A stretch of 64,000 nt of DNA from Actinomycetospora sp. NBRC 106378 (GTDB taxonomy: Bacteria; Actinomycetota; Actinomycetes; Mycobacteriales; Pseudonocardiaceae), in assembly GCF_030269685.1 (NCBI RefSeq), contig NZ_BSTT01000007.1, positions 62,001 through 126,000 on the forward strand, written 5' to 3'. The position numbers were made by a program, and so were the translations under genes. Within the stretch, counting starts at the first letter, position 1. Each line of letters starts with the position of its first letter. The notes under the pieces are model-generated. The model ran no database searches. It was not told where the DNA came from and was given only the letters and a program-made list of their open reading frames with translations. Shown here in pieces: positions 924 to 42,190 of the stretch.

Positions 924-1631
924 TCACACCGCCCCGGCGGTGCCGGCCGGCGTACCCCCGAGCGCGGCGACGAGGACGCGCCGGACGGCGTCGGGATCGG
1001 GCGCCGAGCCGGGCCGCAGAGCGGCGTCGACGGCGTCGGAGACCGGCGCGTTGTGCGGCGCGATCGCCCGGGCGAGCAGGACCTGCGCCCGCGCGAGCCC
1101 CGCCGTCGCCGCACCCTGCATCTCGTCGACGAGGGCCTCGCGGCCGCGCGCGCGGGACCGGAGGGCGTCGAAGTCGCGGGCGGCCGCGGAGTGGCCGGCG
1201 GCGAGCCCCGAGCCGACGTGGCCGGCGTGGTGCGGCGAGAGGCCGGAGCCGGGCTGCGTCACCAGGTGGTAGAGGACGGTGGAGATGCCGAGCGTGCCCC
1301 GGACCTCGTCGGGACGGGGTCCCTGTCCCTCGTCGATCAGCCCGAGCGCGGGCAGCACGACGGGGTCGTAGAACCGGACCCTCCAGTCCAGGCCGTCGAG
1401 CGACCCCGGGAGCTCGACCTCCTCGCCCCGCAGCGGTCCGAGGGGCTCGGTGGTGGCGAGGACGTGGAGGTGGCGGGCCCCGGCGGCGACCACCGTGAAG
1501 CGTCCGGCCGCGAGCAGCGGCATCCGCCCGCGCACCGCCGGCGGGAACGTCGCCGCCTGCTGGGCGTAGGCCGCGTGGATGCCCTCGACGTAGCCCGCGA
1601 CGGCACGACGCATCGCCATCGGGTCGGCCAC
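924..1631 (-). CDS. Uncharacterised protein of the meta-cleavage locus
   Basis: A 235-residue soluble protein I do not recognise. The GTG start at 1631-1629 is chosen because an AGGAGG ribosome-binding sequence lies 4 bases upstream; in-frame ATGs at 1619 and 1613 are alternatives. No signal peptide or membrane segment is visible. The middle has a His-rich stretch (HHAGHVGSGLAAGHSAAAR, about residues 138-156), which could bind metal or be structural. It is the first gene of the minus-strand unit that continues into the IclR regulator and the hydratase, and it is divergent from the catechol dioxygenases. Context suggests an accessory role in aromatic catabolism. No function is assigned. Confidence 0.65.
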   Translation of the reverse strand: MADPMAMRRAVAGYVEGIHAAYAQQAATFPPAVRGRMPLLAAGRFTVVAAGARHLHVLATTEPLGPLRGEEVELPGSLDGLDWRVRFYDPVVLPALGLIDEGQGPRPDEVRGTLGISTVLYHLVTQPGSGLSPHHAGHVGSGLAAGHSAAARDFDALRSRARGREALVDEMQGAATAGLARAQVLLARAIAPHNAPVSDAVDAALRPGSAPDPDAVRRVLVAALGGTPAGTAGAV

Positions 1632-1648
1632 CGCGCCTCCTCGGGGTC

Positions 1649-1686
1649 GTTCCGGCTTCCGGAACGCGGGCTCTTCTCCCCGGAAC
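1649..1686. promoter_or_regulatory. Candidate IclR operator in divergent promoter
   Basis: GTTCCGG (1649-1655), a 3-bp spacer and CCGGAAC (1659-1665) form a perfect inverted repeat. A third half-site CCGGAAC lies at 1680-1686. It sits in the 115-bp gap between the minus-strand unit starting at 1631 and the plus-strand dioxygenases starting at 1747. Three half-sites in a divergent catabolic promoter fit IclR-family binding, as seen with PcaR/PobR-type operators. The assignment is inference. Confidence 0.5.
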
Positions 1687-1746
1687 GCTAGGGCGGTTAG
1701 CGTCGTGACGTCAAGCACACGAGTCCCCGACGGAGAGGACCCCGAC

Positions 1747-2661
1747 GTGGGCATCCTGCGCCTCGCACACATCGACGTGCGGACCCCCGACCTCGACCTC
1801 TCGACGGCCTACTACACCGAGGTCATGGGCCTGCAGCAGGTGCAGCGGACCGACGACACGGTGTACCTGAAGTGCTGGGACGAGGAGGACCACCACTCCC
1901 TGCGGATGCGGTACAACCCGCGCACCGGGATGGACTCCTTCACGTTCCGCGTGGAGGCCGAGGACGACCTCGCCGACTTCGAGAACAAGGTCGAGGCCTA
2001 CGGCTGCCCGACCTCGCGGGTGAGCCGCGGCGAGGCGGTCGGCCAGGGCGAGTCGTTGCGCTTCGAGGTCCCGTCCGGCCAGATCATGGAGCTGGTCTGG
2101 GACATCGAGAAGACCGGCAACCTGCTCGGCAAGCACAACCCGTCGCCGACCCCGCCGCCCGACCTCCCGGGCATCGCGCCCCCGCGCATGGACCACATGC
2201 TGGTCAACGCCGAGGAGGTCGCCGAGTCGGCGCGGTTCTTCATCGACGTGCTCGGGCTGCGGATGACCGAGCAGGTCCTCGACGGCAACGGCCACCAGCT
2301 CGGCGTCTGGCTCGCCGGCCGCACGAACTCGCCGCACGACATCGCGATCGTCAACGGCCCGAACGGCGCACTGCACCACTGGGCCTACTGGCTCGACGAC
2401 TGGGACCACATCCGCAAGGCCGCCGACACGCTCGCCTTCAACGGCGTGCAGATCGACCAGGGCCCGACCCGCCACGGCGTGACCCGGGGCAACACCATCT
2501 ACTTCTTCGACCCGCTCGGCATCCGCAACGAGGTCTTCACCGGCGGCTACTGGGTCGACCCCGACACCGAGATCCTCACGTGGACCGAGGACAACTTCGG
2601 CAAGGGCCTCTTCTACTACGAGAACGTCGTCAGCCAGCGCTTCCTGCGCATGCACACCTAG
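1747..2661 (+). CDS. Catechol 2,3-dioxygenase (extradiol), copy 1
   Basis: A 304-residue two-domain VOC-superfamily enzyme that cleaves catechols next to the diol (meta cleavage) using Fe(II) and O2. The GTG start at 1747 is preceded by GAGAGGA and gives an N terminus (MGILRLAHIDVRTPDL) that matches the family. The expected metal ligands are present: H150 (RMDHMLV), one of H210/H211 (LHHWAYW) and E262 (RNEVFTGGY), close to 153/214/265 of XylE. The family signature YFFDPLGIRNE is intact. It is the first gene of a plus-strand operon. A paralogue starts 12 bp downstream, which suggests an old tandem duplication with different substrate ranges. Expression is probably controlled by an IclR protein. 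Confidence 0.93.
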   Translation: MGILRLAHIDVRTPDLDLSTAYYTEVMGLQQVQRTDDTVYLKCWDEEDHHSLRMRYNPRTGMDSFTFRVEAEDDLADFENKVEAYGCPTSRVSRGEAVGQGESLRFEVPSGQIMELVWDIEKTGNLLGKHNPSPTPPPDLPGIAPPRMDHMLVNAEEVAESARFFIDVLGLRMTEQVLDGNGHQLGVWLAGRTNSPHDIAIVNGPNGALHHWAYWLDDWDHIRKAADTLAFNGVQIDQGPTRHGVTRGNTIYFFDPLGIRNEVFTGGYWVDPDTEILTWTEDNFGKGLFYYENVVSQRFLRMHT

Positions 2662-2672
2662 GCGGCCGAACC

Positions 2673-3617
2673 ATGCCCACCAATTCCTCGTCCGACCGCA
2701 TCCTCCGGCTGCAGCACGTCGAGATCCGGGTCCCCGACCTCGAGCTCGCCGCCGCCTACTACACGGAGGTGCTCGGCCTCGTCGAGACCGCCCGCGACGA
2801 GCGCGACGGCGCCGAGCGCGTGTTCCTCAAGTGCTGGGACGAGCGCGAGCACCACTCGGTCATCCTGCGCGCCGCGCCCACCCACGGCCTCGACCACATG
2901 TCGTTCAAGCTGCACGCCCCCGAGGACCTCGACCACTTCACGACGAAGCTCGAGGCGGCCGGGGTGGGAGTCAAGCGCTTCGCCGCCCGCGAGCTCGGCC
3001 CGGGCTGGGGCGAGGCCATCCGGTTCGAGGCCCCGTCGGGCCACCTCGTCGAGCTGACCCACGGCACCGAGCGCATCGGGAACATGCTGCCGATGCAGAA
3101 CCCGCCGCCCCGGCCGCAGGACCTGGTGGGGATCGCGCCGCCCCGGCTCGACCACATCTTCGTCATGGCCGAGGACGTCGAGACGTTCACCGCGTTCTTC
3201 ACCGAGCTGCTCGAGTTCCGGCTCACCGAGCAGATCCTCGCGAACGACGGCCACCAGCTCGCCACGTTCCTCGAGCACTCCCACACCCCGCACGACATCG
3301 CCGTCATCACGGGCCCGAACGGCGCGTTGCACCACTTCGCGTTCTGGATGGACGACTGGAACGGCATCCGCGACGCCGCCGACACCCTCGCCTACCACGG
3401 TGTGCCGATCGACGTGGCCCCCACGCGCCACGGTGTCACCCGCGGCTACACCACGTACTTCTTCGACCCGGCCGGCAACCGGAACGAGCTGTTCACCGGC
3501 GGCTACTGGGTCGACCCCGACTTCGAGCCGATCACGTGGACCGAGGAGGAGATGGGCCGGGCGATCTTCTACTACCACCGCCAGGTCAACGAGCGCTTCT
3601 TCACGGTGCACTCCTGA
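2673..3617 (+). CDS. Catechol 2,3-dioxygenase (extradiol), copy 2
   Basis: A 314-residue paralogue of the preceding gene with the same two-domain VOC fold. The N terminus (MPTNSSSDRILRLQHVEIRV) carries about eight extra residues. All metal ligands are kept: H161 (RLDHIFV), one of H220/H221 (LHHFAFW) and E272 (RNELFTGGY). The two copies share many blocks (AAYYTEV, FLKCWDE versus YLKCWDE, GGYWVDPD) but differ throughout, so the duplication is not recent. The stop codon overlaps the next start as TGATG, implying translational coupling. Retaining two complete enzymes suggests complementary substrates, for example catechol versus alkylated catechols; that is inference. Confidence 0.92.
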   Translation: MPTNSSSDRILRLQHVEIRVPDLELAAAYYTEVLGLVETARDERDGAERVFLKCWDEREHHSVILRAAPTHGLDHMSFKLHAPEDLDHFTTKLEAAGVGVKRFAARELGPGWGEAIRFEAPSGHLVELTHGTERIGNMLPMQNPPPRPQDLVGIAPPRLDHIFVMAEDVETFTAFFTELLEFRLTEQILANDGHQLATFLEHSHTPHDIAVITGPNGALHHFAFWMDDWNGIRDAADTLAYHGVPIDVAPTRHGVTRGYTTYFFDPAGNRNELFTGGYWVDPDFEPITWTEEEMGRAIFYYHRQVNERFFTVHS

Positions 3618-5454: not shown

Positions 5455-5509
5455 TGGCAGGAAAGCGTCGTTGCCGGCGTCCAGTGGCAGCAACGACGCT
5501 TTCCTGCCA
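5455..5509. terminator. Perfect 20-bp inverted repeat, likely shared bidirectional terminator
   Basis: The left arm TGGCAGGAAAGCGTCGTTGC (5455-5474) and its exact complement (5490-5509) flank a 15-base loop. It fills the gap between the IclR stop (5445) and the nitrile hydratase alpha stop (5510, opposite strand), so it can serve both convergent transcripts. No T-tract follows. A copy of the left arm recurs at 42154-42173, so this is also a dispersed element. Confidence 0.75.
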
Positions 5510-6106
5510 TCACACCTGAGGGACGGCCACGCCGATCAGACAGTCCCGGGTGACGACGGCGAGCTGCTCATCGTCCGGGAGCGCGTCCACCCCGTCCGGC
5601 GCCATCGGCACGACGAGGTACCGCGCCTCGGCGCTCGCGTCCCACACCCGGACCTCGACGTCGTCCGGCAGCGTCGTCCCGAACTCCGCCAGCACGCCAC
5701 GCGGGTCGCGCACCACCCGCGACCGGTAGGCCTCGCTCTTGTACCAGGCCGGGGGCGGGCCGAGCCAGGCCAGCGGGTAGCAGGAGCACAGGGTGCAGAC
5801 GACGACGTTGTGCAGCTCGGGCGTGTTCGCCACCGCGTGCAGCCGGATCTCCGACGAGTAGCCCCCGCCCGCGACGCCGAGCTCGGCCGCGGCCGCCCCG
5901 GCGTCGCCGAGCAGACGCTCCCGGTACCCGTCGTCGTTCCAGGCCCGGACCACCATCCGCGCCCCGTTGACCGGCGACACCGACCGGTCCAGCGTCTCGA
6001 TCCGCCGGTCGATCTCCTCGCGGTCGACGATCCCGCGCTCCTCGGCGAGGGCCAGCAGCGCGTTCACCCGCGCCTGCAGCTCGCCGTTGCGGTGGTGGCC
6101 GGTCAT
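5510..6106 (-). CDS. Nitrile hydratase alpha subunit, cobalt type
   Basis: A 198-residue protein with the metal-binding claw C104-T-L-C107-S-C109 (VVVCTLCSCYPLAWLGPPPA). Thr in the CTLC position is characteristic of Co(III) enzymes, and two of the cysteines are normally oxidised to sulfinic and sulfenic forms. The flanking P-x-W-Y-K-S and DPRGVLAEFG segments are also family hallmarks. The enzyme hydrates nitriles to amides. The ATG at 6106 overlaps the stop of the upstream beta C-domain gene (ATGA), giving a three-gene operon. No activator (P14K-like) gene or amidase is next to it in the window. The paralogous gamma subunit of thiocyanate hydrolase is an alternative identity, but the operon layout here is closer to three-subunit nitrile hydratases. 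Confidence 0.92.
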   Translation of the reverse strand: MTGHHRNGELQARVNALLALAEERGIVDREEIDRRIETLDRSVSPVNGARMVVRAWNDDGYRERLLGDAGAAAAELGVAGGGYSSEIRLHAVANTPELHNVVVCTLCSCYPLAWLGPPPAWYKSEAYRSRVVRDPRGVLAEFGTTLPDDVEVRVWDASAEARYLVVPMAPDGVDALPDDEQLAVVTRDCLIGVAVPQV

Positions 6107-6372
6107 GGGTGCTCCAGGTACGACTCGAAGAGGTCCACGTGCACGAGGTCCCGCGCGCCGCCGTCGGGACCCCACAGCTCTCTCCCGGTGAAGGCCACCG
6201 TCCAGATCGCCTCCCGCCGGGCGTCCGCCCCGACCGCCGCCGCCTCGTCGGGGAAGCGCCCGTCGCCCACCGGGCGCACGACGACACCGGTCCGCCCCCG
6301 CACGTACGACGGCGCCCGGTTGTGCCCCGGCGGGTTCAGCGCGCGGACCCGCACGCGGTCGCCCGCCTTCAC
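6103..6372 (-). CDS. Nitrile hydratase beta subunit, C-terminal domain as a separate gene
   Basis: An 89-residue protein corresponding only to the SH3-like C-terminal domain of nitrile hydratase beta. It begins MKAGDRVRVRALNPPGHNRA and includes PSYVRGRTGVVVR, then IWTVAF, GRELWGP and VHVDLFESYLEHP. The Arg within GHNRAPSYVRG matches the conserved beta Arg that contacts the alpha-subunit claw. Its GTG start at 6372 overlaps the TGA of the upstream N-domain gene (GTGA), and its own stop overlaps the alpha start (ATGA). Separation of the two beta domains is known in toyocamycin nitrile hydratase (ToyK/ToyL) and in thiocyanate hydrolase. It therefore looks like a genuine small subunit, not a broken gene. 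Confidence 0.88.
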   Translation of the reverse strand: MKAGDRVRVRALNPPGHNRAPSYVRGRTGVVVRPVGDGRFPDEAAAVGADARREAIWTVAFTGRELWGPDGGARDLVHVDLFESYLEHP

Positions 6373-6623
6373 GCCGCCAGCAACCGTTCGACCGCGTACA
6401 GCCAGCGCTCGTAGTACGGCATCGCGTAGTACTGCGCCGGCGGGATCCGCTCCATCGTGTGCCGGAACTCGTCGAGTGTATAGACGCCCGCGGCCACGCA
6501 CGCCTGGTTCAGCGCGAAGACCTGGGCCTCCCACACCGACTCGAAGCCGTGGTCCTCCGGCAGGTCCCCGAACCCGTGCATGCCACCGACGTCGTTCGCA
6601 TACGCCACGGCCCCGAGTCTCAC
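6369..6623 (-). CDS. Nitrile hydratase beta subunit, N-terminal domain as a separate gene
   Basis: An 84-residue protein matching the helical N-terminal domain of nitrile hydratase beta. It contains NDVGGMHGFGDLPED, then WEAQVFALNQACVAAGVYTL and DEFRHTMERIPPAQYYAM, ending PYYERWLYAVERLLAA. The Arg in EFRHTMERI is the other conserved beta Arg of the family. GTG 6623 is the preferred start because a GAGGG lies about 8 bases upstream; GTG 6608 is possible. The start codon lies inside a dispersed palindromic element (6622-6668). As first gene of the operon it would be transcribed from the 116-bp gap shared with the divergent TetR gene. Confidence 0.87.
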   Translation of the reverse strand: MRLGAVAYANDVGGMHGFGDLPEDHGFESVWEAQVFALNQACVAAGVYTLDEFRHTMERIPPAQYYAMPYYERWLYAVERLLAA

Positions 6624-6668
6624 GAGGGGAACCCTCGCACCACAAGAGCGCTCACATCCTCCCCTCAC
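6622..6668. repeat. Dispersed 47-bp palindromic element, copy 1
   Basis: This stretch begins ACGAGGGGAACCCTCGCACC and ends ATCCTCCCCTCAC. It is about 80 percent identical over 47 positions to 48941-48987. It contains internal complementarity (GAGGGGA with TCCCCTC). Here it supplies the ribosome-binding region and part of the start codon of the nitrile hydratase beta N-domain gene. Confidence 0.65.
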
Positions 6669-6711
6669 GATCGCAAGCCACCGTCTGATCCGCCAGTCAG
6701 TCCTTGCGATC
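6669..6711. promoter_or_regulatory. Candidate operator, 9-bp inverted repeat
   Basis: GATCGCAAG (6669-6677) and CTTGCGATC (6703-6711) are perfect complements separated by 25 bp. They lie just upstream of the TetR-type regulator at 6740 and between it and the divergent nitrile hydratase operon. Autoregulatory binding by the HTH-TetR fusion is plausible. No experimental evidence is available. Confidence 0.45.
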
Positions 6712-6739
6712 CGAGCAAGGGAGCCGTAGCGTTCCAGCT

Positions 6740-7570
6740 ATGGACGACGACGGGCTCCGCGACCGGGTCCGCGCGGCGATCGACGCCGCGGGTTCCCGAC
6801 GACGGGTCGCGGCGGCGGTCGGGCTCGACGAGACCAAGCTGTCGAAGTCGCTGGCCGGTCGGCGCCGCTTCACCCCGGACGAGCTGGACCGGATCGCCGC
6901 GCACACGGACGTCGAGCTGACCTGGCTGCTCCGCGGCGAGGGCGCTCCCCCGGTGACGGCCGCGTCCGACCTCATCGCGGCCCGGGACGAGCCCGACGAC
7001 GCCCGCAAGCGCATCCTCGACGCGGCGTGGACGCTCATCGCGACGCGCGGCTACCACCGGGTGCGCATCGCCGACGTCGGCGAGGCCGCGGGCACCAGCA
7101 GCGCGAGCGTCCACTACCACTTCGCCGACAAGGACGCGCTGCTCGACGAGGCGCTGCGCCACAACGTGGAGCTCGCCCACGACCGGCAGGCCGCCGCGCT
7201 CGCCGGCGTCGACGACCCGCTCGAGCGGTTGCAGACCCTGCTCGACCTGCAGATGCCCGAGGGCCCGGTCCTGGAGCCGGAGTGGTCGATCTGGATGCAG
7301 GTCTGGGTCGAGGCGCTCACCGAACCCCGCCACCGCGACCTCTACGCCCGCGGGCAGGACCGCTGGTTCCGCACCGTCCTGATGACCCTCGTCGACGGAG
7401 CCGAGCGCGGGGTGTTCACCCACGGCGACCAGGAGCTGCGCGCCCGCCAGCTCACCGCCCTCGTCGACGGTCTCGGCGTCGGCGTGATGACCGGCGCTTC
7501 CACCCCCGCCCAGATGCGCGCCGCCCTGCGCGACTTCACCACGACCATCGTCCGGAAGGACCTGCCATGA
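6740..7570 (+). CDS. TetR-family regulator with an extra N-terminal Cro/C1-type HTH domain
   Basis: A 276-residue protein with two DNA-binding modules. Residues 5-68 look like a Cro/C1-type HTH (RRRVAAAVGLDETKLSKSLA, then FTPDELDRIAAHTDVELTWL). Residues 82-130 are a standard TetR HTH (ARKRILDAAWTLIATRGYHR, then AGTSSASVHYHFADKDALLD). The rest is a TetR ligand-binding domain with a WSIWMQVWVEAL segment like the BetI/TetR_C_6 type. ATG 6740 is used because it starts exactly where the first HTH begins. Its stop overlaps the BKACE start (ATGA), so it is the first gene of that operon and likely its ligand-responsive repressor. Confidence 0.88.
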   Translation: MDDDGLRDRVRAAIDAAGSRRRVAAAVGLDETKLSKSLAGRRRFTPDELDRIAAHTDVELTWLLRGEGAPPVTAASDLIAARDEPDDARKRILDAAWTLIATRGYHRVRIADVGEAAGTSSASVHYHFADKDALLDEALRHNVELAHDRQAAALAGVDDPLERLQTLLDLQMPEGPVLEPEWSIWMQVWVEALTEPRHRDLYARGQDRWFRTVLMTLVDGAERGVFTHGDQELRARQLTALVDGLGVGVMTGASTPAQMRAALRDFTTTIVRKDLP

Positions 7571-42153: not shown

Positions 42154-42190
42154 TGGCAGGAAAGCGTCGTTGCCGGCATCCAGCGGCAGA
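42154..42190. repeat. Decayed copy of the TGGCAGGAAAGCG palindrome
   Basis: The left arm (42154-42173) is identical over 20 bp to 5455-5474. The expected right arm is degraded to GGCAGAAACGCCGC. A short extra fragment, TCCGTGGCAGGA, lies just upstream at 42131-42142. It cannot form the full stem of copy 1. Confidence 0.6.

What the first reader, a model, noticed from the sequence alone, without database searches (positions are those of the whole stretch)
5510..6623. Nitrile hydratase with the beta subunit split into two coupled genes
The beta N-terminal helical domain (84 aa) and the C-terminal SH3-like domain (89 aa) are separate genes joined by GTGA, and the alpha gene (CTLCSC, Co type) by ATGA. 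The two parts sum to about 173 residues versus about 220 for a normal beta, so the inter-domain linker is missing. That makes a simple frameshift unlikely. Three-subunit nitrile hydratases are few (toyocamycin ToyJKL; thiocyanate hydrolase is analogous). This copy is in a catabolic setting without an adjacent activator or amidase.
Basis: partly seen in the sequence, partly recalled or inferred. Interest (0 to 1): 0.7.

Follow-up and report, generated by a model that had tools for sequence, protein, structure and literature searches.

The report
Three-part nitrile hydratase, activator-free lineage
This is a real cobalt-type nitrile hydratase whose beta subunit is made as two small separate proteins; one enzyme of the same plan has been studied in Streptomyces, and the plan turns out to be a widespread branch of the family that seems to manage without the usual helper protein.

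Summary
On the minus strand lie beta-N, beta-C and alpha, overlapping by GTGA and ATGA. The beta-N start is probably 6608 (79 aa), not 6623. All three match nitrile hydratase (NHase) families; the active-site residues checked are present except the alpha Gln90-Gly-Glu patch. About 50 linker residues are absent. It is not an assembly error: the seven Actinomycetospora genomes found with this copy keep split and neighbours, with purifying selection on all three genes. 'Few' is wrong: 17 of 83 loci surveyed have this layout. The precedent is Streptomyces canus ScNHase (PMC7329996), where the beta-N protein doubles as cobalt chaperone. None of 42 distinct loci with this layout has an activator in the fetched flanks; of 96 other rows 87 have one. 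Eighteen of 18 such genomes searched hold no second beta-N-like protein (two chosen for that). The window's own genome has two activators beside fused-beta NHases. Not a thiocyanate hydrolase by sequence. Substrate unknown; assembly and self-chaperoning inferred; ancestry of the split unresolved. Verdict: new member of a known kind.

The parts
6369..6608 (-). beta-N subunit gene (79 aa, GTG start; the alternative start at 6623 gives 84 aa): helical N-terminal half of NHase beta
   Evidence: Pfam PF21006 81.3 bits; start choice from 7 species; Arg/Glu/Tyr/Trp residues conserved
6103..6372 (-). beta-C subunit gene (89 aa): SH3-like C-terminal half of NHase beta
   Evidence: Pfam PF02211 83 bits; PDB NHase beta residues 140-224, E 8e-16; GH-x-R motif conserved
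5510..6106 (-). alpha subunit gene (198 aa), metal-binding subunit
   Evidence: Pfam PF02979 248 bits; NCBIfam TIGR01323 246.1 bits, just under its 249.85 cut-off
5780..5797 (-). CTLCSC metal-binding motif of alpha (Cys104, Cys107, Cys109)
   Evidence: translation; CTLCSC identical in all 39 rows of the core split clade
6369..6372 (-). GTGA overlap: beta-C start codon / beta-N stop codon
   Evidence: -4 overlap with GTG also in the five Actinomycetospora loci listed
6103..6106 (-). ATGA overlap: alpha start codon / beta-C stop codon
6609..6739 (.). divergent intergenic region between the NHase trio (-) and a BetI-type TetR gene (+, ATG 6740), with a conserved inverted repeat CTTGC-N7-GCAAG at 6703-6720: candidate operator
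   Evidence: alignment of 7 species: both arms kept in 6 of 7, one arm base changed in A. termitidis; function inferred
6740..7570 (+). TetR-family regulator (BetI-type C-terminal domain), divergent neighbour
   Evidence: PF13977 and PF00440; TIGR03384 78 bits, under its cut-off

Best explanation
The three genes make one Co(III) nitrile hydratase of the three-subunit kind. beta-N (helical) and beta-C (SH3-like) together replace the usual beta subunit and sit on alpha, which carries the metal in Cys-Thr-Leu-Cys-Ser-Cys; the likely assembly is (beta-N, beta-C, alpha)2. Overlapping start and stop codons keep the three products in step. A free beta-N can also bind alpha on its own and act as the cobalt and subunit-swapping chaperone that in ordinary NHases is a separate activator protein, so no activator gene is needed. 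The product hydrates an unidentified nitrile to its amide. Shown here: gene anatomy, family membership, most active-site residues, conservation, purifying selection, absence of a local activator. From the literature on a same-plan enzyme: hexamer and beta-N chaperone role. Inferred: that this copy behaves likewise, and possible control by the divergent TetR regulator.
For: Families and matches to solved NHases. beta Arg52, Tyr68, Tyr69, Trp72 and Arg157 equivalents in every split N-C-alpha row tested (41 beta-N and 42 beta-C rows); beta Glu56 equivalent in 41 of 41. PMC13243292 (passages) names AnhD-Glu56 and AnhE-His21 as contributing in ScNHase; I place them at the conserved Glu and at the His of GH-x-R (own placement). 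Split and synteny kept in the seven species found. pN/pS 0.04-0.31 (N), 0.27-0.50 (C), 0.21-0.50 (alpha). No activator in the fetched flanks of 42 of 42 distinct N-C-alpha loci; present in 87 of the other 96 rows. 18 of 18 genomes searched with a trio have a single PF21006 protein, the beta-N itself (G009 and G013 were chosen because one search showed one match). Precedent: S. canus anhD-anhE-anhA, three subunits, no activator found in the genome, D2E2A2 deduced by its authors from size exclusion, AnhD as chaperone (PMC7329996); TNHase (alpha beta gamma)2 (PMC8574189, passages). Window subunits 9.0, 9.7, 21.5 kDa against 10.41, 11.35, 21.33 kDa for AnhD, E, A.
Against: No expression or activity data. 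The conserved Gln90-Gly-Glu patch of canonical alpha is replaced (S-[ED]-I in 7 of 7 type A rows), so substrate range or even activity could differ. alpha falls 3.75 bits short of NCBI's NHase alpha cut-off. The window's own genome has two activators that could serve it in trans. T. thioparus thiocyanate hydrolase also has three chains but has an activator (PMC7193024), so a split beta does not always mean no activator; and eight SCNase-like fused loci also lack one in their flanks, so missing activators are not unique to the split.
Confidence: 0.85

Rival explanations
1. It is a thiocyanate hydrolase, the other three-chain member of the family.
For: Same kind of split and three chains; alpha scores 185 bits to TIGR03887.
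Against: TIGR03887 cut-off is 291.45. Solved-structure matches are much weaker to SCNase (alpha 146 bits against 208, beta-N 31.8 against 57.9, beta-C 34.6 against 61.6). Eight genes over the SCNase cut-off (unnamed family f2) form a distant group with other residues at several motif positions.
Confidence: 0.03
2. The beta-N protein is really an activator (P14K-like) and the enzyme has only half a beta.
For: Activators are homologous to beta-N; P0001 scores 27.8 bits to the accessory-protein model.
Against: It scores 70.7 bits to NHase beta and is under the activator cut-off of 46. In a tree of 162 rows the 67 activators fall on one side of a branch (support 100) and all beta-N rows on the other (only 96 columns). 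It keeps the GG and Arg52 positions that activators lack or vary.
Confidence: 0.04
3. A recent frameshift or assembly error broke an ordinary beta gene.
For: Halves adjacent and overlapping.
Against: Seven species share the split; the linker is absent rather than out of frame; purifying selection on both halves; the split clade is coherent.
Confidence: 0.01
4. The trio depends in vivo on an activator from one of the two fused-beta NHase operons in the same genome (no self-chaperoning).
For: Two activators in the window's genome.
Confidence: 0.1

Closest known systems
ScNHase (AnhD-AnhE-AnhA) of Streptomyces canus CGMCC 13662
   Same: Gene order beta-N, beta-C, alpha; no activator gene beside it; similar subunit sizes; CxLCSC motif; Glu56 and His21 equivalents present (own placement)
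   Different: Different genus and neighbours; the window copy is a separate sub-branch if ScNHase lies among the Streptomyces loci (assumed); type A has a short beta-N (79 aa) and beta-C (89 aa); the window's genome also holds activators; activity here untested
Toyocamycin nitrile hydratase ToyJKL (TNHase) of Streptomyces rimosus
   Same: Three subunits of about 21, 10 and 11 kDa, (alpha beta gamma)2 (PMC8574189, passages)
   Different: Belongs to a nucleoside antibiotic cluster (PMC12648386, passages); alpha alone is reported active (Nelp et al. as cited in PMC7329996); no such cluster among the nine neighbours scanned here; sequence not compared
Thiocyanate hydrolase (SCNase) of Thiobacillus thioparus
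   Same: Three chains with the beta halves separate, Co centre, same superfamily
   Different: Much weaker sequence match; has an activator (PMC7193024)
Ordinary Co-type NHase (beta-alpha-activator), as at G000 C1 and C14
   Same: Family, the beta residues checked and the CTLCSC motif; chemistry assumed
   Different: Fused beta with a long linker, activator gene, QGE patch and CYPWP motif in alpha

Membership tests
Three-subunit activator-less NHase (ScNHase kind) | Gene order beta-N, beta-C, alpha as separate genes | tested here: met
Three-subunit activator-less NHase (ScNHase kind) | No activator gene in the locus | tested here: met
Three-subunit activator-less NHase (ScNHase kind) | No activator gene in the genome | tested here: inconclusive
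   Two activators in the window's genome; none found in G009, which carries the same copy
Three-subunit activator-less NHase (ScNHase kind) | CxLCSC metal motif and beta Arg/Tyr/Trp active-site residues | tested here: met
Three-subunit activator-less NHase (ScNHase kind) | Falls in one clade with N-C-alpha loci of Streptomyces | tested here: met
   SH-aLRT 96 (21 rows), 90 (39 rows), quick trees; genus g8 taken as Streptomyces because every named protein among the best 120 relatives of its alpha (G145) is from Streptomyces; ScNHase's own sequence not available
Three-subunit activator-less NHase (ScNHase kind) | Hexamer, nitrile hydration, beta-N as chaperone | not testable with these tools
   needs protein work
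Canonical two-subunit NHase | One continuous beta subunit (TIGR03888 over 152.2 bits) | tested here: not met
   70.7 and 82.6 bits for the two halves
Canonical two-subunit NHase | alpha over TIGR01323 cut-off 249.85 | tested here: not met
   246.1
Canonical two-subunit NHase | Activator gene beside it | tested here: not met
Thiocyanate hydrolase | alpha homologue over TIGR03887 cut-off 291.45 | tested here: not met
   185 bits
Toyocamycin NHase | Sits in a deazapurine nucleoside cluster | tested here: not met
   Of nine neighbours scanned, eight are catechol dioxygenases, IclR and TetR regulators, a histidine phosphatase, a carnitine-type dehydrogenase and a BKACE; one has no match

The most novel reading that the evidence does not exclude
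The N-C-alpha, activator-less NHases are a separate old lineage, not a broken form of the ordinary enzyme: a stand-alone beta-N that is both structural subunit and metal chaperone came first, and ordinary NHases arose by fusing beta-N to beta-C and splitting the chaperone job off into a dedicated activator that was copied once from beta-N.
Probability: 0.25. Interest if true: 0.6.

Novelty: new member of a known kind. Interest (0 to 1): 0.38.

Why it matters
It shows that a design reported as exceptional (ScNHase, TNHase) is a common branch of the family, found here in many Actinomycetota and in two Eremiobacterota (Vulcanimicrobiota) MAGs, with one deep Pseudomonadota relative. Genomes that hold only this kind of beta-N protein and no activator give a clean natural test of how the cobalt centre is built without a P14K-type helper. 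It also offers short, separable subunits for NHase engineering. The beta-N halves are named inconsistently in public sources (NHase beta, accessory protein, SH3-like protein, hypothetical), which hides the class.

Tried and rejected
Thiocyanate hydrolase reading: tested and dropped. beta-N as an activator: dropped. Frameshift: dropped.

Ancestral split: attractive on the quick trees, where three deep split rows (L140, L144, L077) branch below both the core split clade and the canonical enzymes when the tree is rooted on SCNase-like rows of unnamed family f2. It is not established. The branch uniting the 67 canonical rows has support 93, under the tool's star. The AU test does not reject the core split clade grouped with beta-alpha-activator NHases (p 0.668, likelihood even higher than the free tree), nor all 24 split rows as one clade (p 0.384); the last test did not finish. 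The outgroup is itself fused in beta, and the T. thioparus enzyme has an activator. Whether activators derive from split or fused beta-N could not be told.

Substrate from neighbours: type A sits between a catechol 2,3-dioxygenase pair and a BKACE / carnitine-dehydrogenase-like pair in all seven genomes found. None of the 13 other window genes tested was a clear match near the split loci of other genera (one weak oxidoreductase match at L020) or near the two type B loci fetched in full, and one search found no neighbour shared by all the non-type-A split loci it compared. A role in carnitine or catechol breakdown is only a lead. An exact CCTTGC-N7-GCAAGG repeat was found only in the window; the shorter CTTGC-N7-GCAAG form is what is conserved. 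A guessed second repeat pattern gave no match. Structure prediction and fold search were not used.

Not found in print: a survey of this three-subunit class, or a study of an Actinomycetospora NHase (searches, judged from listings; open-access library only). Guo et al. 2019, McCarty and Bandarian 2008 and Nelp et al. 2014 were not read; they are cited through the papers named.

Full report
What is there. Three minus-strand genes overlap head to tail: beta-N, beta-C (GTGA overlap) and alpha (ATGA overlap). Pfam and NCBIfam place them as the N-terminal half of NHase beta, the C-terminal half, and NHase alpha. Among solved structures the best matches are NHases: alpha 208 bits, beta-N 57.9 and beta-C 61.6, against 146, 31.8 and 34.6 for thiocyanate hydrolase.

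The linker. After the Trp72 equivalent beta-N has 10 residues left, and beta-C has 16 before the His of its GH-x-R motif (own count). Fused betas with activators have medians of 75 and 76 residues between these points. A second kind of split exists (alpha, beta-N, beta-C, activator), in which beta-C keeps 23-25 residues ahead of the domain in 11 of 12 loci (no start was found in L054, whose split is therefore doubtful). It is nested among alpha-first fused enzymes. The two splits are different things.

Not an artefact. Five of five Actinomycetospora loci among the 80 kept by the contig search, and seven of seven genomes of the genus found with this copy (window plus six), have the same split between the same neighbours. 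pN/pS against six species is 0.04-0.31 for beta-N, 0.27-0.50 for beta-C and 0.21-0.50 for alpha.

How common. Of 83 loci (80 of the 163 relatives found, plus the window and the two other NHase loci of its genome), 17 are beta-N, beta-C, alpha without an activator; 12 are alpha-first with a split beta (L061 holds two sets, one with no activator found); 54 are fused with an activator. The 80 were the relatives closest to this alpha, so these are not frequencies for the whole family. In the unnamed family f5, taken as Streptomycetaceae because the named relatives listed for the alpha of one member (G145) are all from Streptomyces, 23 of 297 genomes have a beta-N homologue; 15 loci were fetched, 14 of them N-C-alpha and one fused. 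Within the genus, 18 genomes were searched: seven carry the window type (A); nine carry a second type (B) elsewhere, whose alphas group with those of Geodermatophilus and relatives; none was seen with both; two incomplete genomes (59% and 83%) have neither. The type B copy of G016 was judged from coordinates only, and several other NHase copies of these genomes were not fetched.

Activator. Among 138 distinct alpha rows, 0 of 42 N-C-alpha loci have an activator in the fetched flanks. Of the other 96 rows 87 have one (40 beta-alpha, 35 alpha-beta, 12 alpha-first split); the eight SCNase-like fused rows and L141 do not. Flanks reach 8 kb for contig loci (shorter at contig ends, as at L020, L027 and L028) but only about 1.5 kb either side of the matched gene for loci from whole-genome searches. 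Genome-wide, 18 of 18 genomes with such a trio have a single PF21006 protein, the beta-N itself: 14 of the f5 genomes, taken because of their trio; G263 and G058; and G009 and G013, picked because one search showed one match.

Active site. CTLCSC is identical in all 39 rows of the core split clade. The beta Arg52, Tyr68, Tyr69, Trp72 and Arg157 equivalents are invariant in the split N-C-alpha rows examined (41 beta-N, 42 beta-C; numbering recalled from Pseudonocardia thermophila NHase). The canonical Gln90-Gly-Glu patch is replaced: S-[ED]-I in 7 of 7 type A rows; of the 32 other core rows 22 keep a Q at the first position and none has the whole patch. The CYPWP motif becomes CYP[ILV].

Phylogeny. 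The core split rows form one clade (SH-aLRT 90 with alpha alone, 39 rows; 96 with alpha+N+C, 21 rows; quick trees). Its place against the fused enzymes is unresolved. Activators form one group opposite all beta-N (support 100).

Literature. PMC7329996 (abstract, passages, Introduction, first part of Discussion): ScNHase has the order anhD-anhE-anhA, the beta N- and C-terminal parts, no activator in the genome, D2E2A2 deduced from size exclusion, and AnhD acts as metal and swapping chaperone. PMC13243292 (passages) names AnhD-Glu56 and AnhE-His21 as contributing; I place them at residues conserved here. PMC8574189 and PMC12648386 (passages) describe TNHase as three-subunit. PMC7193024 (passages and section 10) lists T. 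thioparus SCNase with an activator. PMC10098168 and PMC3323583 (passages) gave background.

Context. The trio lies tail to tail with an IclR gene and head to head with a BetI-type TetR gene that leads a BKACE / carnitine-dehydrogenase-like pair. A conserved inverted repeat lies between trio and TetR. This suggests shared control, inference only. Window neighbours were not found beside the split loci of other genera, apart from one weak oxidoreductase match, so the trio looks like a self-contained cassette.

Verdict. A real three-subunit NHase, new member of a known kind. What is added is the breadth of the class, its link with missing activators, and its motif differences.

Noticed in passing
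window 5455-5509; also 42154-42173: A 20-bp inverted repeat (folds at -44.7 kcal/mol, z -8.7) whose arm occurs 221 times in the genome at up to one mismatch (reversed control 0), often as pairs 35 nt apart. It is in 5 of 18 genomes of the genus with counts 221, 24, 103, 126 and 4; no Y1 transposase (PF01797) was found in the window's genome. A REP-like interspersed palindrome of unknown origin.
   Followed up: partly
L131-L138 (eight genomes of unnamed family f2, same order as the window): Genes over the thiocyanate hydrolase gamma cut-off sit beside a fused beta rather than two separate chains, with no activator in the fetched flanks.
   Followed up: partly
genus genomes G000-G017: In the 16 Actinomycetospora genomes of at least 84% completeness one activator-less split NHase was seen in each, type A or type B, never both (G016 from coordinates only, not all other NHase copies fetched). 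Could be shared descent; not tested.
   Followed up: partly
window 1753-3617: Two tandem catechol 2,3-dioxygenases, both over the NCBIfam cut-off, next to a histidine-phosphatase-like gene; kept in all seven type A genomes found.
   Followed up: no
window 6624-6650 region: A leader block with a short GC-rich inverted repeat upstream of beta-N, well conserved in five of seven species and absent in two.
   Followed up: no
L128 (G008:C9) and L141 (G026:C2): L128 has a beta-N-like frame with no beta-C or alpha found in its 16 kb; L141 has alpha and beta-C with no beta-N found.
   Followed up: no
window 924-1772: A protein of up to 282 aa with no Pfam or NCBIfam match at E 1e-5, kept in all seven type A genomes found.
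   Followed up: no
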